A stretch of DNA of 64,000 bases, taken from Paralichthys olivaceus. Lineage: Eukaryota; Chordata; Actinopteri; Pleuronectiformes; Paralichthyidae. Location: positions 17,828,458-17,892,457 of the forward strand of contig NC_091096.1 of the NCBI RefSeq assembly GCF_024713975.1, in the 5' to 3' direction. How positions within the stretch are numbered: position 1 is the stretch's first letter; the number at the start of each line of letters is the position of its first letter. The notes below the pieces were generated by a model. It made no database searches. It saw only the letters and a list, made by a program, of their open reading frames with translations, and was not told the origin of the DNA. This document shows positions 4,221 to 40,754 of the stretch, piece after piece. The position numbers were made by a program, and so were the translations under genes.

Positions 4221-7200
4221 GCCCCACATGAGCAGCAGATATCAGCAGAGAAAACCAGGGAGGGACTGTTGTGTCGGGGCCTGACTGGGCTATTGTATGG
4301 GGCTGTTGTTCATATGGGCAGGGGACAGTAATTAACACCACAGCCAAACAGCAAGCTGTGTGGCCCATTTGTTTTCTGTTGGGGGGTAAAAGAAAACAAT
4401 GGGGAGGGGCTCTCCACACAGTAGGTGATTGACATTATCTGCTGGAGCAATCCACGGAGGCATTCCTGCTGCTTCACTATTCACCACAAGTTGGGCGAAG
4501 CCATTTCACCAGCGTCAGGCCTCGTCTGAGCTGCCACTTTATACAGAGGCGCTCTTTTATTTGTTGTTTGACTGATTGTTTGCTTGATTGATTGAGTTAA
4601 TCCAATTCAGCACACATGTCTAGACATATATCTGTTTTAGGTAGTCCAAATTATTTGGCTTTTTCCCAAAGTCAGTCAATGTTTTTTGAGCGATTATTTC
4701 TATGTAAAAAATGTAAGAAATATTCTAATATATTTCTATTATTTTGTAGATTTAGTGTGATTATGATTCAGCTCTGAAGGCGGCAGATAGAAACTAGAAA
4801 AGTTTGGGATTTTTCTCTGTCCTTTTGGCAGCGTGTCTGACTTAGTTTGACAGCAAATGTCCAGACATCTGTCTCTGCTCCATGCTCTGATGTTGGCCTG
4901 CAGTATGGCACCCCACACTTCAGAGATGACAAAGACTCTTGGCTGGGTTTTCCTCCGCTCTGTGAGAGCGATGTAACAATTAGAACCCAGCTCTGGCAGG
5001 CCACATGCCCCAGAGCATATGTTGTATTCTCTCTGTACGAAAAACCAAAGGGCTTCAGTGCAGCTTTTTTGGAAAATTTCTGTGGCATCACTGCCACCTT
5101 TGTCGCATCTGGGTCCTGTAAAAGTAGCACATTCTACTGATGTCTATTCTGAGTGTTGGAGGCAACAGGGAAGCCTGGAAGACAATTAGAGAGCTACAGA
5201 AATGGATCAGCTAAACTTCACTTTAGTTGCTCATTTCTTTCAGTTCTCTGTCCGAGTCTATTTACCACAGCTCCCATGCTGAAACAGACATGCTATGAGT
5301 CCCGGCCATATGTGTGTATTTGTTTCTAATAAAATAAGGGCATGTGTAAAGCATTAATAAATGTCTTGCACTTAAATTGATTTTAGTTTTATGTTTCAAT
5401 CTTTTACCATATTTAAATCCGGTCGTTATAAATCCTGTAGCTCTGTTATAACTTTTTCTCACACTTCCTTTTTTGTTGTTGCCCTAACACTGAGAAAGTT
5501 TTTGCTGTGCAGCATGGCCTGCAATTCCTCGCCTTTTGTTTCCTGAAACAACTCGTAGACCCACACACCCTCCCTCCCTCCCCCTCTGTCTCATGAGCGG
5601 TGCGCTCGCTGCTGCTCTGGTCTGGACTGAAGCTAATGTGACAGTGTGCGGCTGGCATTACCTGGCTGGATGTTTCGGGGAGTGTGTGAACCGTTGCTCC
5701 ACAGGGCACACTGGCAATTAAAAGAAAAGTAGACGCTCAGAAAAAAAAAGTGCCTGGGGGCATGTTCCTCAGTCCTGGCAGAAGCTGTCAAATAAGGGAT
5801 GGATTGGGTGGGAGAGCAGGGGTGGGCACGGGAGGGCTCGACCAAACGCTCACAATAGCGCTTGTTTCATTTGTGGAAGGACTCATGATTGACATAGATT
5901 AGACAGAGAAAACTGCATTGTTTTGGATTTTCTCTCTGGAGAGTAGCATTCATTAGGCACCCTGCACACAGCGGAGTAAAGTTTCAATAGGGAGCTAGCA
6001 GCCTCTAAAAGCAACTGCCTCCTGACAGTTGTATGGACTTGGGCCCATTAGTTGGAACCTACGATTCAGCCTTGAGCAGTATAGTGAAAATGAAGAGGGC
6101 TGATGTCAACTCTAAGAATTCCCCCCTTTTTCGAAGGGAAAAAGGGTCCCCTTCCCCCTGCCTCAGAGCGCTGTTGGACCCCAGCTGTCAGGAAACAATA
6201 CCCTCTGCCTGCTCCGACAAACTCATTCCTGAAAATGTTTTTTTTCTCCCTCCTCTCCCTTTTCCTCCCTCCTGCCATAATGTCTTTTCCATTTTTAACC
6301 CACAGCCATCCAAGCTTCCTTCCTCCTTACAAATCCTGAGTGATGAATGAACTTTTAAAAATCTAATCCTGAATGCATGACTCCACCGGTTTACTTGTTT
6401 GTCATCATTTATCCTGCAGTGACTTTTGAAAAGTGGACAAAGCTTTGCATGTGTCCTTTAAGAGGGTTTGTCACTGATTTTTTTAAGTGTCAGATACCTT
6501 TTCTCGTCTTTTCCATTCGTCAGAAGTGTGCTTTGGGTGGACGCCAAACTGTTTGTGCACAGGAATTCATAAGCGCAATGCTATGTAAATGACAAGGATG
6601 GTAAACACTGCAAAATGAATGCAGTGGACGCTGGGTGAGATTGTGCAACCACCTCATACACTGAGAATTCACTGCTCGTGACAAACTTTCATGCCCAAAA
6701 GGCAACATGAATAATAAACTGTGATACTTTTCTTCGTCTAGAATAAACAGAGTTGAATGAGCAAAGCATTACCTACAATAGGAAACCCATTTAATTAATT
6801 TGAAATTGTACCAGGGAGAAAATCCACATGCATGACAGGCTGCTGTATCCGGTATTTAAAGTGATTCATAAACCAGATGGTTGAACCGTGCTTTTGGAGC
6901 CCCGGCTTCATGCTATCTTCATCGCTGGAGAATGAAAAAAAAAAAGAGAGAGGAAGAAAAAAAAGTTCAGCTTCTTGTATCGAGCTGTAAATCACAAAAA
7001 CGTAGCTCCGACGCCATGTCACGGCAGCGGCAAAGATGCGGGCAGCAGCAATAATGAGACCAACTGTGGTGGAAATCTTTGTGACAAGTTTGAAAAAACA
7101 CTTTCACAACATCTTATGATAACTTTGTGTGTGAAATACAGGGATAGTGACAGGAGGAGGAACGGTGTTCGGGGTCAAATGGCCCATCCGATTGAGTCGG

Positions 7201-17283: not shown

Positions 17284-20158
17284 ACACACATACACACCAG
17301 TCATTCATGGCCTGAACCTTAATTGGAGCATTTTTTTAAATGTGTATCTTGACAACATGCCGTCACTTGCAGCAGCGGCAGCTGAGTGATTCACTGGAGA
17401 CTTAGCAGGATGTTTACAGACACAGTCAGTATAGGTTTATTACCAGGGGAATAAAATGGCACCTCCTTGTTTATACAGTATAAATTACTAAATACATCAC
17501 AGAAAATATGAAGCAAAATATCAACTCCTGATTGAAACGGTTTTACTTTATAGAGGCAGTGATATTGAACGTTGACTGTGAGTGAAAATAAGCCTTTAAC
17601 CATCTTTCTGTGGGAGCTCTTGTTACCTTCAGTGCAGTTCAGTGTCATTCTTGATGGATAGAAACAGATACAAAACTTCAGCACAAGATCACTGTGGGTT
17701 GATTCACACTTTTCACCTCATGCAAGTGCATGGCTACACTGTGCATTGTCTGGTGTAACATGTTGAGAGGCTTAAATAGAGGAATTTCAACGCTATAGAA
17801 CTGTAACTATAGTATGATAGAGCGGTTTGGAGCTTTGTCCATTACAATGCTCCATTGTATTAACAATTGGAACGCGGGAGAGCCACTTTGTAAAAGGTGT
17901 TCTGTGTGGACGGCTGTCAGAACGCTCTCCATGGTCTGGAACGTGGTAAGGAAAGTGGTTTCAGGTGTCATGGCCATGCTGTCACCATGGTAACAACACA
18001 CTTCACTTTTCTCCAGCCATAGCAGAATAAAGGGGCTTTTGAAAAAGTCTTTATTTGAACAAAAAGCAAGCATGTAACTCTTTGTGCGTTTGAATTTAGT
18101 CTAGACAGAGGCAGTAGGCGCAGTGGATTTTTTTTTCCCCGCAGGGTGAGGCAGGGCAGTAACATGCCAAGTTAGCTGGGCTGCTCAGAAACGTGGTGTC
18201 AAACCCGACCGTTAACATGTCGCCTCCCTTCGTCTTCTCAGCTTGGTGTCCAGCCGTTTCTCCCCTCACATGGTGACTCCGCCCCCGCACAGCCTCCACC
18301 AGACGGGCATCCCCCACCCTGCCATCGTCTCCCCGGCCATCAAGCAGGAGCCCAGTGGTGACCACATCGGCTCCTCAATGCATGCGTAAGGAGAACTTGT
18401 TTAATCGTCAAAGACTGCTTTTGTCTTTACCCGAGTTGGCCATCTTGTACCAGAGCCTCTCATTCCCATTCACGCTTTATTAACAGTATCTTTTTAATGT
18501 TTCGGATTAGCAGGAAATCCCCTGTTCCCAAGAAAGAAGAGGACAAGAAGCCTCATATCAAGAAGCCCCTGAATGCTTTCATGCTGTATATGAAGGAGAT
18601 GAGAGCCAAAGTGGTGGCAGAGTGCACTCTGAAAGAGAGCGCTGCCATCAACCAGATCCTTGGAAGACGGGTAAGTGGCACAGACAGAGGCATGCATGTG
18701 AGTTTATGTGTGTGTGTTTGTTTGTGAAGCAGTTCTTTGAAATATTTTGTGTCCGTCCACAGTGGCATTCCCTGTCGAGAGAGGAACAAGCCAAATATTA
18801 CGAGCTGGCCAGAAAGGAGAGGCAACTCCACTCCCAGCTCTATCCAGGGTGGTCAGCACGGGATAACTATGTGAGTGACACACGTCCAATGTCAGCTCTT
18901 AAATCAATACGTAGAGAAAGTCTGAAATGTTTTTTTGTTTTTTTCACGTTTCAATCACATATAATATGTATAATTATAGTAATCACATTTTTTTCCCTTG
19001 CTGAAGTGGTTTAGTTTCACTATGAAAAATAACGTTGTTTTATCTGTGCAGGGAAAGAGGAAAAAGAGGAAGAGAGACAATAAACCAGACTCAAAACCAG
19101 AAGGTAAGAGGCCCTTTCCTCATGACAGCCTCTTTCTATTTGTTTTGTTTTCTCTTAACATACTTGTGTATGAAAGAACAACTGTGAGAGGTTTATTTTC
19201 CTTAAGAAGCTCGAGTGCAACCTGGGACACTGCTTGTTTATCCTGTTATTTTTATCTAGCTTTTTTCTGCATGGAGTCTTTTCTTCACTAACACTTACTA
19301 ACTTCTTTCCCTGCTTCTGTGCTTTGACAAGCAGCTTATGAGGTTCAGTGCTAATAGTGGCAGGTATGTCTGCTGTTGTGCAACTAAATGACAACTGCAC
19401 TTCCTTCAGAATAACATTGAAATGTGGGCTGAAGTACACATTTGTAGTGTGTCATGTTCATAAGTCGTACACCATCTTAATATGTTGAACATCCTGTTTC
19501 ACTGTCCCTATTGTGACGTGTTGTCGATTTTAACATGTCAGAACTTTCACCGCCATTATCTTCACTGTCACTCCTTCACTGCTGTCGCCGGCAGTATTCA
19601 GGGACTTGAACCAGATTCACAGCCAGCAGCAGATCCATAATTCAACCTCTTCACTTCTCCTTTGTTTTCCTCCCAGACTTCTCCATAAGAAACAAGAAGC
19701 AGTGTGTGCAGTACCTGCCCTCGGAGAAGATGTGTGACAGCCCGGCGTCGTCCCACGGCAGCATGTTGGACTCACCAGCCACTCCCTCTGCTGCCTTGGC
19801 CTCCCCCGCTGCGCCTGCCGCCACTCACTCCGAGCAGGCGCAGCCCCTCTCGCTCACCACCAAACCGGAGGGACGCATGCACCACCACCACTTCTCCCTA
19901 TCCGGCAAGGCCTCTGGATCCACTTCCTCTTCTTCCTCCTCCTCTTCTTCCTGCTCATCCCAACCCGCCATTTCCATCCCAATGGGTGGTTCAGGTAGCC
20001 AGCCGACTACACCCATCCTCTCTCGGCCAATCCCCTTCACCTCCCTGCACCACTCCATGCTCTCCCCACCTTCCCCTTTCCATCAGGCAGCCCTTCACTC
20101 CCATCATGCCCTGTTCCAGTCGCAGCCCCTGTCCTTGGTAACCAAACACTCTGAATAA
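7695..20158 (+). CDS. tcf7l1: tcf7l1: transcription factor 7-like 1 (TCF3), C-terminal ~450 residues over nine exons
   Basis: This is an HMG-box DNA-binding factor of the canonical Wnt pathway. It sits in the nucleus on CTTTGWW sites and, without beta-catenin, represses with Groucho/TLE and CtBP. Nine exons (7,695-7,778; 15,090-15,225; 15,718-15,820; 16,416-16,499; 18,242-18,385; 18,511-18,670; 18,763-18,870; 19,052-19,103; 19,677-20,158) join in frame into 1,353 nt. All introns have GT..AG ends. Assignment to TCF7L1 rather than TCF7L2, LEF1 or TCF7 rests on [26 protein letters not shown], the C-terminal run [20 protein letters not shown], and two CtBP motifs ([14 protein letters not shown]); there is no complete C-clamp. 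The beta-catenin-binding N-terminus lies left of the window. Teleosts carry a and b copies and I cannot say which this is. Tgoln2 lies 6.6 kb downstream in the same orientation, as in human. Confidence 0.95.
9660..10105. promoter_or_regulatory. candidate conserved non-coding element
   Basis: A long non-repetitive stretch, GC-richer than its surroundings, with TGATTATGTGCTCATTA and GCACTAATGAG cores (homeodomain-like). Open frames on both strands here are not protein-like. Inferred only from composition. Confidence 0.22.
10380..10525. promoter_or_regulatory. candidate conserved non-coding element
   Basis: Short balanced island without repeats, between AT-rich DNA and a CA microsatellite. It contains ATGCTAATCGG and TCAATTATTCAA, which resemble POU/homeodomain sites. 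Inference only. Confidence 0.2.
10641..10688. repeat. CA/GC-A microsatellite
   Basis: Mixed (CA)n and (CGCA)n tract, interrupted by ATGCAAG. Confidence 0.9.
11850..12150. promoter_or_regulatory. candidate conserved non-coding element
   Basis: About 300 bases of complex, CpG-bearing sequence in an otherwise AT-rich intron. It is open in more than one frame on the minus strand but has no recognisable protein. It reads more like a conserved regulatory block than an exon. Inference only. Confidence 0.22.
13358..13857. mobile_element. degenerate MITE (non-autonomous DNA transposon)
   Basis: The left end (AAAGGCCAATTTATGCATCT) and the reverse complement of the right end (AGCCTGCTTTATGCTTCTGC) are imperfect terminal inverted repeats enclosing about 500 bp with no coding capacity. 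The 'ggccaatttatgcttctgcg' start is one I recognise from dispersed teleost elements. A target duplication is not clear, which fits an old copy. Confidence 0.5.
15090..15225 (+). CDS. tcf7l1: tcf7l1 exon: [18 protein letters not shown] segment
   Basis: 136 nt, phase 0 in and phase 1 out. It encodes [18 protein letters not shown], then [20 protein letters not shown], and ends ILDPKTG with the Gly codon split. The acceptor is CTCAACAG and the donor ACAG|GTGACG. It belongs to the Groucho/TLE-binding, context-dependent regulatory region. Confidence 0.95.
15718..15820 (+). CDS. tcf7l1: tcf7l1 exon: [19 protein letters not shown] segment
   Basis: 103 nt, phase 1 in and phase 2 out. It encodes [20 protein letters not shown] and then [15 protein letters not shown], with the last Gln codon split. 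The acceptor is CACCTGCAG and the donor CACA|GTAAGT. The end of this exon is where TCF7L1/TCF7L2 carry the LVPQ motif; here it reads LMSQ. Confidence 0.94.
16416..16499 (+). CDS. tcf7l1: tcf7l1 exon: [17 protein letters not shown] segment
   Basis: 84 nt, phase 2 in and out. It encodes [20 protein letters not shown] and then AMNASMS. I chose the acceptor TCTTAG at 16,414-16,415 because it restores QQGQ as in the family; the AG four bases later would shift the frame. The donor is CCAG|GTGAGC. Confidence 0.94.
17201..17297. repeat. CA microsatellite in tcf7l1 intron
   Basis: A nearly 100-base (CA)n tract with a few TA interruptions. It gives a spurious His-Thr open frame. It is likely to vary in length. 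Confidence 0.95.
18242..18385 (+). CDS. tcf7l1: tcf7l1 exon: [12 protein letters not shown] segment with a SUMO-type motif
   Basis: 144 nt, phase 2 in and out. It encodes [20 protein letters not shown], then [20 protein letters not shown] and a short tail to SSMHA. The SLVSS start is the SxxSS motif found in repressor-type TCFs. IKQE fits the sumoylation consensus. The acceptor is CTTCTCAG and the donor ATGC|GTAAGG. Confidence 0.94.
18511..18670 (+). CDS. tcf7l1: tcf7l1 exon: first half of the HMG box
   Basis: 160 nt, phase 2 in and phase 0 out. It encodes an acidic/basic lead ([12 protein letters not shown]), then [20 protein letters not shown] and [15 protein letters not shown], the first two helices of the HMG box. 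The acceptor is a TAGCAG tandem (AG at 18,509-18,510 and 18,512-18,513); using the second would delete one Arg. The donor is ACGG|GTAAGT. Confidence 0.97.
18763..18870 (+). CDS. tcf7l1: tcf7l1 exon: second half of the HMG box
   Basis: 36 codons, phase 0 at both ends. It encodes [20 protein letters not shown] and then [16 protein letters not shown], the third helix and the start of the C-terminal tail. The acceptor is GTCCACAG and the donor CTAT|GTGAGT. Near-identical to the vertebrate family. Confidence 0.97.
19052..19103 (+). CDS. tcf7l1: tcf7l1 exon: basic tail / nuclear localisation signal
   Basis: 52 nt, phase 0 in and phase 1 out, encoding [17 protein letters not shown]. The KRKKRKR cluster directly after the HMG box acts in this family as the nuclear localisation signal and makes minor-groove/backbone contacts. 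Confidence 0.94.
19677..20158 (+). CDS. tcf7l1: tcf7l1 last coding exon with two CtBP-binding motifs
   Basis: 482 nt to the TAA at 20,156. It begins [20 protein letters not shown], which covers only the last part of a C-clamp (KKxCVxY); the earlier zinc-binding cysteines are absent, as in other TCF7L1 proteins. It continues with [25 protein letters not shown] (19,844-19,864), a His run, a poly-Ser stretch (about 19,919-19,960) and ends [10 protein letters not shown] (PLSLVTK 20,126-20,146). The PLSLxxK motifs recruit the corepressor CtBP. The poly-Ser stretch is of low complexity and may vary between species. Confidence 0.96.
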
Positions 20159-27267: not shown

Positions 27268-30200
27268 GTGAGTGGAGTTTGGTTTCGATGGTTTTTCTTC
27301 CTCCTTCAGATTCACTCGTCAGAGAAATCCTTGGTTTAATCACCCGCGTAAGCTAATGGAGCTAATGTCGGACAGCAGCATCCTGACACTACGCAGACCG
27401 TGTGAGGTTAATCCAAGCACGGAGGCCTCTTTCACCATCAGTGATTAGTGGAGTTAACGCAACATCGGTTCGTTTGACAGTTTCCGTGATGTCACTGAAT
27501 AGAAACTCCGGGAGCCCCCCCTCCCCCTTACTTACTTAAATACCATTTGAGTGAAAAGGAACGTAAAGAAAACCAAATGAGTGGAGCCGTTCATGTGGTT
27601 TGCTTTTATTTCCTGTTACAAAACTACAAACACACCAGTATATAGAACGACCCACACAGATAAAACATGCAAAACATAAAAAAATAAAATAAAATGAATG
27701 ATCTAATTTAAATATTTCCAGTTTGAGGGGCAGGGAATCAAACTGCCAACCACATTCCTACCATACATTCCTCATAAAACCTTTCCCTCCAAGTTCCTAC
27801 ACCTCTGCTTAACTACATGCCAGGACTCTTATTGTGAAACCTGGCCTTACCTTTTAATTGGAGGGATTTTGGAGGACAACATATGTGTAAATAATGAATC
27901 TTCTAAAACTAGAATTTGACCCTCACCAAGATGTGGTCACAAGAGTAGTGAATAATGCATGTACGCACCTCAGTTGACATTGTGCTTTCCCGAACACCTT
28001 TTCACAGGACGCTTCTGTGCTTTGCCTGGTTACTATCCAGGGTTTGATCAGTGGTGTATGAACTTTGGGTAAACGATTCTGTGTGTTACATGGGTAGACC
28101 CAGGCTGTCATATTCAGAGTACATGTACACTCATGCAATTTAATAGAGTACACTGTTGTTACATTTACAAAGCTCAGTTTGATCAAAATGTCTGCTGTCC
28201 CGCTCTGCCCTCATCGTGCATGCGATTGTTTGATAAAATATTCAACTTCACAAAGCAGCCATGCATGCAATGTGCTCGGTTCTCGTCTAGTAGCATACCT
28301 TTTGTTTAACGTCATTCTCAAACGTCTTCTTGTCTACTCTTCTGAGTACCTGTCTTTTTTTTAAATAAATCAAGTCGTATACAAACTACATAAATGAGTG
28401 ATGAATTAAAGGAGCAACATAAAACAACATTTGTCTTAGTAAAGTGTTGGAACACAACATGCTGCCAGAACAGCATCAGTGCATCTTAATGTTATACGTT
28501 CAAGTCTGTGGAACCGTGCTGGAGGGATGAATGATCGTGGTGTCCAACAAGATGGTTCAAAATCTGCTACAGGTCTGTGTAGAAATCTGGTGATTGCAAA
28601 AGCCGCACCATATAATTACATCTCACATTTATACTCTTCATACCATTTAGTGACTCCTCTTTCTATGAAGCCTGTCTGGAGCTGTCATATTACCAAGCTG
28701 TTTTGCAGCGTGCAGAGGCTACCTCCTTTGCACTGATGTCATGGCCTTCGTGTTATGCTTATTACCGCATATAATCCAGTCAGATAATCCAATAATCCAA
28801 TAATCCAAGATAATTTGATAAAATGGGGGAAGCTGACAAGAACAAGACAACAGAGGACATTAATAATAAGGTGGGACAAATATTCAGTAGGTTACAGTTG
28901 GAAAATAGTTGAAGTAACGAAGTCAAGCAAGCAGAAAATGGCAGCATTTATTGCTTTTACTATTAGATTACTTTGTTGTCTGTGTTTTGTGTTTTCATGT
29001 GATTCTTAAAATATTCTTTGATTTACTTACAGCAATAAATGATGGGGCTGCTCTTACAGACACGATGAAACAAAACCCACCTGATCATCAACAAAGCAAC
29101 ATCAAATCGACAGCAGCTGAGGAGAATGCAAAGTTAACTGGTGTCACTGATGAGGAACATGAACATCAGGCACACGGCACTGACATTTCAACCAAGATGG
29201 AGAAACGTGAAGAGACGTCTGCAGACAACACTCAGTCCAAGACAAAACTGCCTGACACAAAAACACAAAGTCAGGAGGATGAAAACCAAAAAACGGACAA
29301 AAAGAAACCCAGTGATCCAACGTCTAAAGGCAAAGAGAAAACCAATGAAGGAGAGACAGGAGTGCAAGATGACAGCCCCACAAAAAAGTCTATCCTGAAT
29401 GCCAAAAAAACATCAGATAATAATGGGGGGGGAAAAGGAGACAAAGAAATAAAACTAGAGGAAAATACAACTGATAAAAAAACAGAGAAAGGAGCAACTG
29501 ATGAAAAACCAGAAGAAGTAGAAACTGATAAAAAACCAGGAAAAGTAGAAACTGATAGAAAAACAGATAAAGTAGAAACAGATAAAAAACCAGGAAAAGT
29601 AGACACTGATAAAAAACCAGATGAAGTAGACACTGATAAAAAACCAGATGAAGTAGACACAGATAAAAAACCAGGAGAAGTAGAAACTGATAAAAAACCA
29701 GGAGAAGTAGACACTGATAAAAAACCAGATGAAGTAGACACTGATAAAAAACCAGGAGAAGTTCACACTGATAAAAAACCAGGAGAAGTAGAAACTGATA
29801 AAAAACCAGATGAAGTAGAAAAAACAGGAGAGACCAGGAAGGAAGGTCTAGACAAAGAAAAAGATGGAAATAATGGAGAAAAAGAAGACAGACGTCAGTT
29901 CAACTTGCCTGGAATGGGGGACGGGACAGAGAGCAGTCATTTCTTTGCCTACCTTGTCTCTACAGCTGCACTGGTGGCAGTGCTTTACATCGCTTACCAC
30001 AACAAGCGCAAGGTACTCGGCCCCTACATCATTTGTTTCCACTAAGACCACTCTGAAGTTACTTATACCGCATTTGGATCAACCATTGTGGCCTGTGTAT
30101 TCTTTTTTCAACATCAGTAGATGTAATGGAATTTTATAAAACTAAAATATAGCACTAGCTCTGTTACAAAACTTGTAATTAGACCCCAACAGTTTCAACC

Positions 30201-33098: not shown

Positions 33099-33644
33099 TC
33101 ACAGTGGCGTCACATTCCTGGACTCTTCTTCGTAAATGTCTGGTATCTCTCCGATGGACGAGGCCACCATTCGGACGGAGTTGCACCCGCGAAGCACCAT
33201 CTCATAGCGGATGAGCTGCTTCCAGAAGCCCGTGTTCGGCCTCACCATGGGTCTGCAGGTCCTCACGGTGCCGTGGGCCTCCAGGAGAGAGAGGCCGCGG
33301 TGCCGCATGAGGAAGGCGATGCACAGCGCGGAGGAGCGGCTCACGCCCGCGTTACAGTGCACCAGCGTGCGGCCTCCGCCGTCCGCTGTCTGCTGGATGA
33401 TGTCCGACACCCGGTCAAAGTGATCGATGAGAGGGGACACCGGGGAGTCGGACAGCGGGATGTGGATGTGCTCCACCCCGGCAGCAGGAGGACAGCTCCA
33501 CCTGGTCTCTGTAACACTGATGATACAAGTGATCTTACACCGACTGACCTGAGCGGAGTCTCGGGCCGCTCGGCCATTACTGAGGTAGAGGTGATCGGTG
33601 ACCTGACACAGGCCCGACAGACCTGCGGGACCAGACGGACTCAT
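33099..33644 (-). CDS. dusp18-like: dusp18-like dual-specificity protein phosphatase
   Basis: 181 residues in one exon, with high GC and CpG content. It is a small atypical dual-specificity phosphatase, a catalytic domain only, that removes phosphate from Tyr and Ser/Thr in proteins. The signature HCNAGVSRS is complete: catalytic Cys97, Arg103; general acid Asp66 in PLSDSP; then CIAFLMRHRGLSLLEAH. The start SGLCQVTDHLYLSNG and the end MVASSIGEIPDIYEEESRN with PL at the terminus are closest to DUSP18/DUSP21 (SGLSQITKSLYISNG; MIPDIYEKEV), less so to DUSP14. DUSP18 is 188 residues long. The chosen Met aligns with the family start; the frame is open for 59 more codons upstream (to 33,821), which I take as 5' UTR. 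It converges on tgoln2. Confidence 0.9.
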   Translation of the reverse strand: MSPSGPAGLSGLCQVTDHLYLSNGRAARDSAQVSRCKITCIISVTETRWSCPPAAGVEHIHIPLSDSPVSPLIDHFDRVSDIIQQTADGGGRTLVHCNAGVSRSSALCIAFLMRHRGLSLLEAHGTVRTCRPMVRPNTGFWKQLIRYEMVLRGCNSVRMVASSIGEIPDIYEEESRNVTPL

Positions 33645-33788
33645 AAACACAGATCCACCGCATGGGATCCACCCACACAGTCTATTGTCGTCTGTAGATC
33701 CACCGACGCTCTGTGATGAAACTGCGCGGGACAGTCTGGCACTGGTAAGGAAAGTCTGGACGGACAAACCCTGTGTACGCACACACGT

Positions 33789-33807
33789 TGTCGCCCCCTG
33801 CTGGATG
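33789..33807 (-). promoter_or_regulatory. candidate CTCF site near the dusp18-like 5' end
   Basis: TGTCGCCCCCTGCTGGATG is the reverse of a good CTCF core (CCAGCAGGGGGCGAC). It sits about 145 bp upstream of the start codon. It is the best match of the four candidates in the window. Confidence 0.45.
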
Positions 33808-33821
33808 ACTTTTATTCTCAT

Positions 33822-35209
33822 TTCTTTTAATTAGAAACAGAAACACATTAGTGATTCATAAATTGACCTAGTTCCATTTCAGATGTTTAGTATGACTGTT
33901 TTTTATTGATGCTATGCCAAACTATGAATAAAAAATATGCTAATATTTAAATAAAGGGAGCTCAACAATGATTAAGAACGACCATTCACACCCGGCAGCC
34001 AGATTCTCCACTACACTTGGCCTGTATCATGATCTTTTCCTCCAAACAAGCTCTTTATTACCCTGCAAAGAATTTCCTGATTCTCTGCCATCCACTTTGC
34101 TTCACTTTGGCAGCAGGAACACCAGCTGACCTGCTGCCATTATTGGCCAATGTCATGGTAAAAGATGAGCTTTGCAGATTTAAACCTAGCTGTGACGCAG
34201 AGGTTGAATTGTCGTCCCTGAGGTCGTGAAGTACACGTCAACATCTACTACAAACTCCATAGTGCAAACATTACTTTCCCTCTGACTGCCTCACATAGCA
34301 CTGTATTCTCTGTCTTCAGGTCAGAATGAACAACACCACTGTCCTACAGGGTGTCTGCTACTGCAGAGACACACATGAATACAAAACCATTAAATAAAAC
34401 AATAACAAAGAAGACATAGCTAAATTAAGCCTACTTAATCATCTGGCTGATTATAATACTTCCAATACAACTGATATATTGATCAAAGCCACAATGTATT
34501 TTTGGTCGTAGCTCACTGAGAGAAAGTTGTTTCCAACAGCATTTCACACACTGTCACGTATGTCTGTTGTCTTCAAACCTCTAAAAGAACTGAATCAGAG
34601 TGTTCAGTGATTCAAGCAATTTGATCTGTGAAGAGAATAGATGTCGCATTACGTAAGCGACATAGCCTGGTATTGTGTTTAATTCAATAACAGAAATGTG
34701 AGCAATAATATGTGAAAGACTCTGTTACTAAAACAGATGAACTACATCTCTTTACCAGACTCTCACATCCACTTCCATGTCAGAGGCCTCACCAAGTCCC
34801 AAACCAACACTGCGTCCATTTAGAGAGTATTTTGTTGTGCGTCGATGCAGCCTGTTTTGGGTGTTGTGATTCCACAGTTAAATGGCATGTAGCCCAGTGT
34901 ATGATCATTAGCTGTTGTCATTGTGCCTCACTAACTTGTTAAATTCAGTTGTATATTGACATTATTTCAGCTTTTTAAAAATATGTCATTATTTCAGAGG
35001 TCAGTTTATTTATTTAGTTCATTCCATTATTCTGATGTCCACATAACAACACAGTATCATGATTTACTCATACACAAGATATCCCCAAATCACCTGGAAT
35101 AACTCACTCTAATGTTCTTTCCTCTAGCACCACCCTCTGGCCAAAGAACACCATACAAAACTCCAAAGTATTGTAAAGGGAGAAATTAAAATATTATACA
35201 TTATCTTTT
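33822..35209. other. intergenic, no gene seen
   Basis: AT-rich DNA between the dusp18-like gene and the lncRNA candidate. Short open frames only. Confidence 0.6.
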
Positions 35210-35455: not shown

Positions 35456-35517
35456 AGATACCAGTGGATAATGAAGTTAAGACGTGAGTTATGTCACAGT
35501 GTGTCTCAGTAGAAGTG

Positions 35518-35541
35518 CAGCAGCAGCAGCAGCAGCAGCAG
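35518..35541. repeat. CAG trinucleotide repeat
   Basis: (CAG)8, followed by GCTGCTGCTG on the same strand at about 35,558, so the two can fold back. It lies about 300 bases before the likely first exon of the lncRNA candidate. Confidence 0.9.
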
Positions 35542-35849
35542 CACAGGGGTGTTGTTGCTGCTGCTGGTGGTGTTGGTGGCTGCAGGCGGTCGCTCCTCTG
35601 TTGCCCTGGAAACACAGATGGTGGATGAAGGGCGCGCATACAAAAGAGCGTAAAACCTGTGGCAGAGGCAGCAGCTGGAGAGCGAGAGAGCACCGGCTCA
35701 TGCAGTCCTGTGCTCTCTCTCTCAGTGGTGGAGCACGTCTCTCTCTCTCTCTCTCGCTCTCTCTGTGACACCTTCCATCCATTTTCTTTGTCTCGGGGGT
35801 TTTCCGTTTCCACTTCTCCCTGTTTACCCAGGACTGGACCATCCCGTCA

Positions 35850-36089
35850 GTCAGTGCGCAGCTGTTGTTGGCACTCCCACATCCGCTGCTGTGGGCTCCA
35901 CCGACACACAGACGACGCTCAGCCGCGGAACATGCTAGTGTGTGTGTGCGAACAGTCGCCTTTCACTGCACACACGCACACAGATTTGCGTGTGTTTGCG
36001 TGTTACACCGCTCCTTTTTTTGCCAGGATGGAAAACAGAAGAAGAGAAGGAAGATGTGGTTTCTTTTTCACCGTGATGCTGCAGGACAG
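35850..36089 (+). ncRNA. putative first exon of the lncRNA candidate
   Basis: CpG-bearing sequence (CCGACACACAGACGACGCTC, AGCCGCGGAAC) ending at a donor CAGGACAG|GTGCGT. Two frames are open for 80-150 codons but do not resemble a protein. The 5' boundary is a guess. Confidence 0.35.
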
Positions 36090-36684
36090 GTGCGTGATGA
36101 ATTTGGTAATCATGTAGGAGAATGAAAATAACCCTGTGGTTCATTTTACTTCTCTTCTTTTTTTAAAATTCACCATTTTCTTTATTGTGCTTAATATCAA
36201 AGTTTATCATATTGGAGGATTTCAGTCCCCTGATTGGATAAACATTTACTCATTTACCCTCCTGCAGCAGAGGGCCTGGTGTGAGGAGAATGTCTTGTCT
36301 CACCCTTGGGGGGGTTTATGAATATTAAATTGTTTTTTTATGGAAAAACAATCTGTGGTGGAATCATGCCATGTTTAGATATACGATCTGTTAAATCTAG
36401 TTGCTGTAGGCAGTCGTAGGCTACAGCTTAGCCTACATAGGCTTTCATCAAATAGATTGTGTTCTTTTAGCATATAGCATGGGCTGCAGCTGCGGTGACC
36501 TATTTTTGTACCTTATAGCCATAGTCTGAAGTTGTATTCTTATGTGAAAATATGTAATTTTTAGTTTCTGGGTCAATATAAGGCAACTTAGCAAAAAATG
36601 TGATGGAAAAAGCATAGAAGAACTACAGATGTCTACGATCAGCTATGGTCCAAACACTCATTCTTTATGCTTTTACTTATTTAG

Positions 36685-36798
36685 GTAACCTTGTGGACGC
36701 TGCTGCACGGACATGACGCTGTATTTATCTGCGGAGCTGCCGACAGGTCACCTTTCAGGACGCCAGGAGGATCCACATGGGAACCAACAGCATGACAG
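36685..36798 (+). ncRNA. putative exon 2 of the lncRNA candidate
   Basis: Acceptor TTACTTATTTAG and donor GACAG|GTTATG enclose 114 bases of GC-richer sequence in AT-rich surroundings. Confidence 0.3.
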
Positions 36799-37082
36799 GT
36801 TATGTGTACTGGCTGGATTATCTTTATTCACATCATGAGGGAAGTTAATCACAGGCACATTCACAGGAGACTTTAATGGCAACTCTGTCAAATCAGTAAG
36901 ATAAATGAGATCAATTAAACCTATTTCAAGTGATACATCATTTAAGATTGGGTGTATTTCATCCCTGTTGTCTGTAAATAAAAGGGAGAAATGAGAGAAG
37001 AGCCATTCCCTGGGGTAACATAGGAAGACAGTTGGGTTGCGTCCCACTTTTCTGCTGCTTTGTGTTGTGTGTTCTTCTCCAG

Positions 37083-37182
37083 TTACACTGAAGAAAGAAC
37101 AGATCGGGACTCACCCTGGACCTCATTGTTAACCTGGCGACATTGCACCCCCCCCCTGCTGTGCTGCAAACCAAAAAGACTG
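37083..37182 (+). ncRNA. putative exon 3 of the lncRNA candidate
   Basis: Acceptor GTTCTTCTCCAG and donor GACTG|GTAAAT enclose 100 bases, including a nine-C run. Confidence 0.3.
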
Positions 37183-38420
37183 GTAAATGATCTCCAGGTA
37201 TATTTACACCACAGTGACTTTTATTCCCCTGTTTTATTTCACTTTACAGCGTGACTTGTTATATAAGGGTTTTGGATGAATATAAACCGCAGAGCCCATT
37301 TCTATGGAATCTTATCTTGGTTTTGCCCACATACAGTGTGTGTCCCTCCCTGTGTATATATGTGTGTTAAGCCCCTGTGCTGGCTGAGAGTGCAGATAAA
37401 TGGGGAACAGATGGAACATGAGAGATTAGTTATGTGTTAAATTGCTGCCATATTTTCTGCTATATGCCACTCTCCTTTCCAGGATTATGGTTAAGAGTGG
37501 AGATAAACCAACCTAAAAGTGTAGACCATGACCAAATCAGATTAGCATAATCTACTTTTCAGATTCGTTTATGCGACATTATGCAGGATTATCCTGTAAA
37601 AAAGTGTTTGCATATTTGTAAGACTGCAGCAGAAATGTGTCTTTTAAAGCACGTCTTGTAGGAGTAGTCCACAGGAATGTGAAGCACATCAGTGTTCACT
37701 TTCTTCCTTCTTCATTTCATCGTGACTGTAACAGTGTCACTTTTCCCACAGTGATCGATGCACGATGCCACCACTGCTCTCCTGCACCTTCAGACGGAGA
37801 GGATCCATGTTGGAGTGTTCCCCCCACTGACAGAAAATCTCTGCCACCTTTGTGCATCAGTGAACGCAACTTTGAAGAGTTAAAAAAAATGCCACCGCTC
37901 GTTGGTGTAGTCAGTGTGAGCATGATCAGATTAAGCAGGAAGGTATTTCATATGAAAAATTGTTTTGCTGGAGCGTTGAGGTTTTTTTTGTCACCCCTCG
38001 ATCGTCTGTATTTGTCCCCCCTCATCCCCTGCTGTGAGTAATACCAAGTACAGCTTCATCCGCCCCCGCTCTCACTTCTGGCTGATCACTGCAGCGATCG
38101 AACGCGTCACGCTCGCTTTCTTCAGCTGCCATGTGCAGTGACCTCTTCCCGCTGTTACCTTGGTTACTCTGTCTAACGCTGTATTCGCTTCTCACCCATG
38201 TGGGAGACACTTTTAACAACAGTGCTGTCCTGTGTGTCTTCTCAACAAAGCAAGCATGTCTCTGTGCCAGATCCAGAATATATTTTAATACATTAATAAT
38301 ATTCTTAGTGTGTGAGAATGGTTTTCACACATTTTACAAAGTGTAATTAACACAGTATGTCATTGTTTGTCTTGAATCCTTTTAAGTTGAGTTACTTTAC
38401 ACAGAAGTTTTTTTTACTGT

Positions 38421-38535
38421 CAGAGTGGGTGTGTTTGTGTGTCTGTGTGAGTGCACTTGTGTGTACGCATGTGCTCTAATCAGGTTTGTGTGTGTTCATC
38501 CTCGTAACTGTGCATGTGTGTTTGTCTGTCTGATA
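38421..38535 (+). promoter_or_regulatory. UGU-rich tract, possible CELF-binding region
   Basis: Irregular TGTGTTTGTGTGTCTGTG-type sequence, not a clean microsatellite. As RNA it would offer many UGU sites for CELF/BRUNOL proteins. Confidence 0.35.
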
Positions 38536-38875
38536 TTTGTACTGGGCCTGAAACTATAAACTGCTTTACTGTGATTTCCCCATAGCTGAAAACCTTCTTT
38601 ACCAAAAAAGCCACTGGATGTAACAAAGGGATAAAAAAATATTTACAAATGATTCTTAGCATTTGTTACAACCTCATTGAAGAACCAGTGATTGTGATTT
38701 AGATAATCACAAGAATGCTGCTGGAAATTAATGGTGTGTAGTTTTCTAAACGACGCCTGCTGGCATTAATTACACTGCTCGGATGCCTGCAGCCCCGTCA
38801 TCTGATGCTTAAGCAAATGACATCAAATGCTAATAATTATGTGCAAATAGCTTTTTACCCAGGTCTGGATCGTAC

Positions 38876-39867
38876 TACTAACAGTATCTCACTAATATCT
38901 AACAGTACTAATGTGTGCTAATGAAGATTACTAACCTGTCCTCTGAATGCTGATGGCTGGCCTGGTTCCTCTCTAACCCACTGACTAACCCTCTGCTTTA
39001 TACATACACACTCCTCTCTCATGATCCTGCAATCCTTCTACAGATGGCCACCTTCAGATGAATTATTAATGAAAAAAAAAAAAATCAAAAAACCGTTAAA
39101 GTGAGCGAGTCAAGAAGGGTTTCAGGACATGGGAAGGGAAATGTTATTAACCACGAAATGATAAGAGGAGCAGACGCAGCTGCTGGTATAGAATGGGTTG
39201 ACCACACACCTAACTGAAGCTGACTCTCATCTGATTCCACTGGATTTGTCACTGGTTATTCACTGTGAAGGCTGAATTCAAACATTCAGAGAGCAGCTTC
39301 GTGTCTGTGACTGTGTGGTCAACCTGTGCAGTTGAGTGTCTGGCTTGTTGTGCAGTGACACACACAAGGCAAGCTAACCTCAGCTCCACTACTAACTCCT
39401 TATGGTGTTGATACTAACAATGGCGAGGGTGTAAAGACCCGCCTGACGCTCTTACTAACACCTGTTCTCCCTGACTGAAACTCTTTCAGTCCTGATGTCT
39501 CCTTCTTAATTTCTTTTATCAGATCAGATCTATATTAGCACCAGGGATGTTCTTAAAATCACATTGCATGGAAACATTTATCCTAAATATCCTCTGTGGT
39601 GTCATGATTTAGTGCAGTGAGCCGTATGACTAAAAACTACGAGTCCTGATGACTGAGCTCAGCAAGAGTTGTTACTAACATCACCTAAAGTTAACAGTTA
39701 CTAACCCGAAGAGCGTTTTAACAGCTCTCTGCAAACTAACAAACTAACCCACTAATAAACTAATGATCTAACAAAAACAACAACTAAATTTACTAACTCA
39801 CTTTGTGATGAGAGTTAGTGAAGCAGCCTGATTTTGAGGAGTTGCATTATTTATTGAATGTACTAAC
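38876..39867 (+). repeat. TACTAAC heptamer array
   Basis: TACTAAC starts at 38,876, 38,929, 39,390, 39,412, 39,453, 39,673, 39,699, 39,791 and 39,861. ACTAAC with another first base lies at 38,984, 39,735 and 39,743; TACTAAT is at 38,906. All are on the plus strand and spacing is irregular, so this is not a tandem duplication but repeated use of a short motif. At random one expects about 0.06 exact heptamers per kb. UACUAAC is the ideal SF1 branch-point sequence and a high-affinity QKI site. Confidence 0.9.
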
Positions 39868-39903
39868 AGAGTTAATAATTTATGAATTCATGACAGGATT
39901 GAA

Positions 39904-39974
39904 TGTGCCTGTGTGTGTGTGTGTGTGTAAGTGTGAGCGCAGAAGAGCATGTGAGTGTGTGTGTGTGTGCGCAG
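39904..39974 (+). repeat. GT-rich tract after the heptamer array
   Basis: Interrupted (GT)n with AAGTGTGAGCGCAGAAGAGC in the middle. Confidence 0.8.
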
Positions 39975-40187
39975 AATGTGAAATGTAACCATATTCATCA
40001 GAACCAAATGTTTCCAGTATTAATCTTTCAAACAAAGTGAGCGTTAAGATGCCTCTAAATCTCAGTTATAACAATCAGCCTGTGCATGTGAATGCATCAT
40101 GGCATGTAAAGAAAAATGAGTTCAATGTATACAAATATTTTTATACCTTATTGCTAATGCATCAGTTGTCTTATGATAAACCTTTGT

Positions 40188-40193
40188 AATAAA
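40188..40193 (+). terminator. poly(A) signal of the lncRNA candidate
   Basis: AATAAA followed within 25 bases by ATGTTTTTTTCC, a U-rich downstream element. The preceding 150 bases look like the end of a 3' UTR. Confidence 0.6.
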
Positions 40194-40754
40194 CACGTAT
40201 AAACAAAACATGTTTTTTTCCTTTATATTGTCTCTATTATAACTGCAACCACCTAAGTGTAATGCAAAAGGTCCCGTGCAGCCAAATATTCCACCAGAAC
40301 AACATCCTCACTCCTGATTGCTTTATCATCCGGACACATGATTACTGCCCCCCCCCCCACACACACACACAGACACACACATGGAAAGGGCTTGTGTCAG
40401 ACACTAAACCTTTAACAACAGCAATACTCTCATACTGATAACAAGGATTGTGTCATTGAAAAAATTTAATTTGTCTGTATCTAAGTTTGATCTCGGAACC
40501 TCTTGGGTCTTGAGTGAGATTCTTCCAAGTAAGAGGTTCTGTCTTTTGTGACATACACATATATCTGGATACATTGATATTTAAATGAACTGGTAAGAGT
40601 GGTAAGAGTTTGAGGGTTTGTTCATGTTTACAATTGATGCAGTTACATGTGTCAACGCTGAATCAATCTATTTAAACTTTTAAAAAATAATTTTGTCCTG
40701 GTTCGTATGGCTTCACATCACTAGGATGATTTTAGATTTGTCATGGATGCATTG

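What the first reader, a model, noticed from the sequence alone, without database searches (positions are those of the whole stretch)
35850..40215. Candidate teleost counterpart of the lncRNA Gomafu/MIAT
Nine exact TACTAAC heptamers on one strand within 992 bases, UGU-rich tracts on both sides, absence of coding frames, and a poly(A) signal downstream reproduce the known signature of mammalian Gomafu/MIAT (UACUAAC repeats binding SF1/QKI; association with CELF3). It may sit in a different neighbourhood from the mammalian gene (here near tgoln2 and a dusp18-like gene). Human DUSP18 and MIAT are both on 22q12, and MIAT lies beside the gene desert next to MN1, which would fit the gene-free DNA to the right.
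Basis: partly seen in the sequence, partly recalled or inferred. Interest (0 to 1): 0.9.

Follow-up and report, generated by a model that had tools for sequence, protein, structure and literature searches.

The report
Fish counterpart of Gomafu/MIAT RNA
A stretch of fish DNA carries nine copies of a landing site for splicing proteins and sits beside the same two genes as the brain RNA Gomafu/MIAT does in people, so it is probably the fish version of that non-coding RNA.

Summary
Nine TACTAAC heptamers lie on one strand at 38,876-39,867, with 18 ACTAA against 2 on the other strand. In 304 kb of this chromosome with tandem arrays masked, TACTAAC is the only one of 16,085 counted seven-base words to reach nine per kb (next: six). 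The copies' flanks are unrelated.

Human order is CRYBA4, MIAT, MN1, PITPNB; human strands are recalled. The 200 kb examined in between show no second array.

Against: the left flank differs (dusp18, a tgoln2-like gene, a TCF/LEF-type gene); the nearest crystallin reported on this chromosome is about 3 Mb away; other transcripts can hold several TACTAAC. Transcription, neural expression and nuclear retention could not be tested. The genome-wide array count did not complete.

Verdict: a strong candidate orthologue of Gomafu/MIAT by motif and position, probably an SF1/QKI-binding nuclear RNA. Papers seen here trace it back to amphibians only.

The parts
38876..39867 (+). Array of nine TACTAAC (RNA: UACUAAC) with further ACTAA half sites; predicted SF1/QKI-binding region
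38380..38560 (+). TGT-rich tract before the array, possible CELF sites (inference)
   Evidence: 23 TGT in 181 bases
39890..39990 (+). TGT-rich tract after the array, possible CELF sites (inference)
   Evidence: 20 TGT in 101 bases
35850..36089 (+).
   Evidence: strong donor at 36089 (10.2 bits); highest CpG observed/expected of the stretch, 0.72, at 35751-36250, though 37751-38250 reaches 0.67
36685..36798 (+).
   Evidence: acceptor 7.2 bits, donor weak, 2.4 bits
37083..37182 (+).
   Evidence: acceptor 8.9 bits, donor 6.5 bits
37752..40215 (+). Predicted large last exon, holding the array
   Evidence: acceptor 6.3 bits; no transcript evidence
40188..40193 (+). AATAAA, predicted poly(A) signal
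   Evidence: other AATAAA on + at 39754, 40948, 41079
33099..33830 (-). dusp18-like single-exon gene, left neighbour, pointing away from the candidate
   Evidence: DSPc domain; best solved relative DUSP18, E 2.9e-49; best other copy in the genome 44% identical

Best explanation
[quoted passage not shown] Shown here: a one-strand array of nine TACTAAC, no recognisable protein, and a position before a 237-kb interval that ends at MN1 and then PITPNB, both on the opposite strand, in the human gene order. Inferred: the + strand is transcribed into a spliced, polyadenylated RNA of about 2.9 kb whose large last exon holds the array; the RNA stays in nuclei of neurons; its UACUAAC sites hold SF1, the branch-point binding protein, and QKI, which recognises ACUAAY; by holding them it lowers their free amount and so tunes splicing at weak branch points. 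The UGU-rich tracts could add CELF binding. I put orthology at 0.83 and this sponge action as the main mechanism at about 0.55.
For: Array far beyond chance, strand-specific, unique among 16,085 words in 304 kb, copies with unrelated flanks. MN1 then PITPNB to the right, both on -, matching the human gene order printed in PMC5546599. No second array in the 200 kb to the right. Little coding potential. Known relatives: human 7, mouse 6, chicken 3 TACTAAC (Table 1 of PMC3116199); 16 ACUAA within about 1000 nt of MIAT (PMC11483029), here 18 ACTAA within 1.1 kb. SF1 binds the mouse repeat, and repeat RNA delays splicing in vitro (PMC3116199).
Against: No crystallin within 2.9 Mb among the places reported, whereas Gomafu lies 3' of CRYBA4 in human, mouse and chicken. 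The left flank is not the human one. No Rfam match to a MIAT family even at E 10. One splice donor is weak and an AATAAA lies inside the array. Several unrelated transcripts hold three to eight TACTAAC in one species (Table 1). No RNA data, no second fish genome, no genome-wide count.
Confidence: 0.83

Rival explanations
1. An unrelated, lineage-specific lncRNA (for example one divergent from dusp18) gained UACUAAC sites on its own and happens to lie on the MN1 side. It could still act as an SF1/QKI sponge.
For: It lies next to dusp18 and points away from it; the CRYBA4 landmark is missing; unrelated transcripts such as mouse Slc8a1 have 8 TACTAAC.
Against: It would need array, MN1-PITPNB side and, with recalled human strands, orientation to agree by accident; no other array in the 264 kb joined to the window.
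Confidence: 0.1
2. The array is not in a mature RNA: it is an intronic, 3' UTR or regulatory DNA feature of an undetected gene.
For: No transcript evidence; exon borders are predictions and uneven.
Against: Strong strand bias of the sites; no coding gene recognised around it; dusp18 is on the other strand.
Confidence: 0.05
3. Chance or a decayed tandem repeat.
For: None found in the calls made.
Against:: beyond every shuffle, the only such word of 16,085, unrelated flanks, no similar stretch in 264 kb; one search lists no tandem array at 38.8-39.9 kb.
Confidence: 0.02

Closest known systems
Gomafu / MIAT / RNCR2 of human and mouse
   Same: TACTAAC array (human 7, mouse 6), ACUAA density (16 in about 1 kb), MN1 then PITPNB on one side in human, no protein.
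   Different: Left neighbour is dusp18, not CRYBA4; predicted RNA about 2.9 kb against 8.7-10.1 kb (lengths in Table 1); no alignable Rfam family; expression unknown.
Chicken Gomafu and the proposed Xenopus RNCR2
   Same: Found by position and repeats, not by sequence alignment; chicken RNA of 3.3 kb is close to the predicted length.
   Different: Chicken has 3 TACTAAC and is brain-specific and nuclear; here 9 and expression untested.
NEAT1 as a QKI-regulated nuclear RNA
   Same: A nuclear lncRNA with ACUAA elements linked to QKI (PMC11483029, passage).
   Different: Different gene and nuclear body; considered only for likeness of mechanism, not tested for membership.

Membership tests
Gomafu/MIAT | Multiple clustered TACTAAC / ACTAAY repeats on the transcribed strand | tested here: met
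   Nine on +, none on -; that + is transcribed is inferred
Gomafu/MIAT | Position on the MN1-PITPNB side, same gene order as human | tested here: met
   human strands recalled; PITPNB was not told apart from PITPNA
Gomafu/MIAT | 3' of CRYBA4 (the landmark used to find it in human, mouse and chicken; a locator, not one of the authors' two criteria) | tested here: not met
   Nearest crystallin reported on this chromosome about 3 Mb away (its counts are lower bounds)
Gomafu/MIAT | Non-coding | tested here: met
   Longest ATG frame of the model 71 aa; no Pfam match over cut-off for 9 of 10 frames of 90 aa or more
[quoted passage not shown]
   No RNA data
Gomafu/MIAT | Nuclear localisation (the other criterion) | not testable with these tools
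   No RNA data
Gomafu/MIAT | Array in the largest, last exon of a spliced RNA | tested here: inconclusive
   Predicted only; splice signals uneven, second AATAAA inside the array
Gomafu/MIAT | Match to an Rfam family of MIAT exons (existence of such families is recalled) | tested here: inconclusive
   None at E 10; chicken Gomafu was not found by sequence search either
Gomafu/MIAT | Direct binding of SF1, QKI, CELF3 | not testable with these tools
   Sites present; needs CLIP or pull-down

The most novel reading that the evidence does not exclude
Gomafu/MIAT is at least as old as the split between ray-finned fish and tetrapods, and what selection keeps is the UACUAAC array in the MN1-PITPNB neighbourhood: length, exon sequence and the whole left flank turned over while nine SF1/QKI sites were kept or renewed. 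A gene of about 4 kb would then be a minimal Gomafu in which the splicing-factor sponge can be tested in vivo.
Probability: 0.72. Interest if true: 0.78.

Novelty: new member of a known kind. Interest (0 to 1): 0.7.

Why it matters
Few long non-coding RNAs can be followed from mammals to fish (general knowledge), and Gomafu's function is unsettled: the knockout mouse shows no developmental deficit and mild hyperactivity (PMC4890022, title and start of abstract in the listing). Papers seen here place its conservation back to amphibians (PMC2876091, PMC5851271; passages). A compact fish copy with the array intact would show which part selection keeps, would date the gene, and would give easily edited animals in which to test whether an RNA can titrate branch-point proteins.

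Tried and rejected
Rfam at gathering threshold found nothing in the window; at E 10 in 35-41 kb it gave 24 weak matches, none of them MIAT and all under their gathering scores, discarded as chance. A protein-coding reading was rejected (one frame of the ten, 35481-35768 on +, was not sent to Pfam). A tandem-repeat reading was rejected. A second array was looked for and not found in the window, the 200 kb to its right or 40 kb that begin at MN1's start. The next richest ACTAA spot on + has 8 per kb (C4:17,918,443) with a single TACTAAC nearby. CRYBA4, CRYBB1 and TPST2 had no tblastn match in the letters held. Papers on zebrafish lncRNAs that hold the word Gomafu mention it in passing in the passages shown.

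Not in print: the listings (30 of 47 shown; 16 of 16; 25 of 57; 20 of 48; 20 of 167; 5 of 5; 15 of 182; 2 of 2) show no title or abstract start that describes a fish Gomafu. This covers one open-licence library; of the 12 papers fetched I saw passages only (for PMC3116199 also abstract and outline). Subscription papers and genome databases were not searched.
Full report
What was claimed. Nine TACTAAC heptamers on one strand near 39 kb, flanked by UGU-rich tracts, without coding frames and with a poly(A) signal, were read as a fish Gomafu/MIAT.

The array is real. The nine are on the + strand at 38,876-39,867; the window holds 15 on both strands against 5.83 expected, and 0 of 100 shuffles reach 15. 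In 38.8-39.9 kb the related half sites follow the same strand: ACTAA 18 to 2, ACTAAY 16 to 1, CTAAC 17 to 1. To ask whether such dense words are common here, I masked tandem arrays in 304 kb of this chromosome and took the highest count per kb for every word that is not of period 1-3: TACTAAC alone of 16,085 reaches nine, the next words reach six, and the other 209 arrangements of the same letters reach at most three. Without the masking, 12 of 13,835 words in the window reach nine per kb; the other 11 start at 28.8-29.5 kb, in or beside the coding repeat of the tgoln2-like gene. The flanks of the nine copies share nothing by eye, and the stretch has no similar second stretch in 264 kb. Selection on single sites is therefore likelier than duplication of a unit (inference).

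It does not look like a protein gene. Of the 10 frames of 90 aa or more listed between 35,367 and 41,083, nine were compared with Pfam: none reached a cut-off, two had weak matches below it. CpG observed/expected peaks at 0.72 in 35,751-36,250 (0.67 in 37,751-38,250), a strong donor is at 36,089 and AATAAA at 40,188, with another AATAAA at 39,754 inside the array. The donor at 36,798 is weak, so the exact exons should not be trusted.

Where it lies. The window is C4:17,828,458-17,892,457 of a 588-Mb genome in 25 contigs; that it is a fish is inferred from the finding and the genes. To its right MN1 was found on the - strand: matches at C4:18,105,883-18,106,035 and 18,116,952-18,117,101, in frames that read as MN1 from recall, and its start at 18,120,240-18,120,497 (59% over 86 columns). 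PITPNB follows on the - strand, six pieces, 44-85% identical, between 18,131,547 and 18,137,709 (not told apart from PITPNA). The candidate's predicted 3' end is 237 kb from MN1's last coding exon. A table in PMC5546599 lists human 22q12.1 as HPS4, SRRD, TFIP11, TPST2, MIR548J, CRYBB1, CRYBA4, MIAT, MN1, PITPNB (passage). The human strands (MIAT +, MN1 and PITPNB -) are recalled; with them, orientation agrees too. One search reported two matches, both of one MN1 gene.

The interval. The 200 kb right of the window have at most one TACTAAC per kb per strand, and the longest open frames printed there are low in complexity or unconvincing by eye. No systematic protein search of it was made, and of C4:18,092,458-18,117,999 only two pieces of about 3 kb are held. 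It resembles the gene desert between MIAT and MN1 in human (recalled).

Results against. The crystallin landmark is missing: of the 135 crystallin-domain matches reported (a lower bound), those on this chromosome are at 5.00 Mb and at 20.82-20.83 Mb, the latter about 3 Mb to the right, beyond MN1. Divergent crystallin pairs on C8, C9, C11 and C18 could include CRYBB1-CRYBA4; whether arrays stand beside them is unknown, because the genome-wide pattern searches did not complete and no letters were left to fetch. No MIAT family of Rfam matched. Table 1 of PMC3116199 lists other transcripts with three to eight TACTAAC, not conserved among species. There is no RNA evidence and no second fish.

What it most likely does. 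The mouse Gomafu UACUAAC repeat pulls down SF1, repeat RNA delays splicing in vitro, extra SF1 restores it, and the repeats are not needed for nuclear retention (PMC3116199, abstract and passages). The motif contains the QKI site ACUAAY (PMC2876091, passage), and SF1 and QKI can each interact with MIAT (PMC11483029 and PMC9221589, passages). CELF3 binds Gomafu in Neuro2A cells (PMC4255692, passages). The fish array offers 9 UACUAAC and 18 ACUAA in about 1 kb, against 16 ACUAA in about 1000 nt of MIAT. I therefore favour a nuclear RNA that holds SF1 and QKI away from weak branch points. Shown: sites, strand, density, position. Inferred: transcription, exon structure, nuclear retention, binding, effect on splicing. 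Confidence 0.83 that it is the orthologue, about 0.55 that the sponge is its main action.

Membership. PMC3116199 names two criteria for the family: expression specific to the nervous system and nuclear localisation (passage). Neither can be tested here, so it should be called a candidate orthologue. CRYBA4 adjacency was tested and not met; it was the landmark of the original search, not a criterion. The repeat array and the MN1-PITPNB side were tested and met. That it works like Gomafu does not depend on the landmark.

Novelty. Conservation back to amphibians is the furthest claim I saw (PMC2876091, PMC5851271; passages); the 2011 paper knew no syntenic region beyond human, mouse and chicken and cites the Xenopus proposal. 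The searches named under Tried and rejected show no fish Gomafu, within one open-licence library. It is a new member of a known kind; the interest lies in depth of conservation and in a compact locus in animals that are easy to edit.

Noticed in passing
window 29469-29821 (+): A 27/81-base tandem repeat codes a KPxEVETDK-like repeat in the tgoln2-like frame at 28918-30045.
   Followed up: partly
window 18362-20158 and 28918-30045: A TCF/LEF-type HMG-box gene followed by a tgoln2-like gene; human TCF7L1 and TGOLN2 are neighbours on 2p11 (recalled), so the left part of the window seems to come from another ancestral block than the MN1 side, with a fusion point near dusp18.
   Followed up: partly
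L006 about 5986-6986 (C4:17,918,443 onward, +): Second richest ACTAA spot of the 264 kb: 8 ACTAA and 4 ACTAAC per kb, one TACTAAC nearby.
   Followed up: no
G000 C8:22.45-22.46 Mb, C9:15.02 Mb, C11:14.29-14.30 Mb, C18:2.48-2.49 Mb: Four divergent pairs of beta-crystallin-like genes, like CRYBB1-CRYBA4 in arrangement; whether a TACTAAC array stands beside any is unknown.
   Followed up: no
G000:C10:2.53-2.58 Mb and C24:0.70-0.71 Mb: Large clusters of crystallin-domain exons, probably gamma-crystallin arrays (the class is inferred).
   Followed up: no
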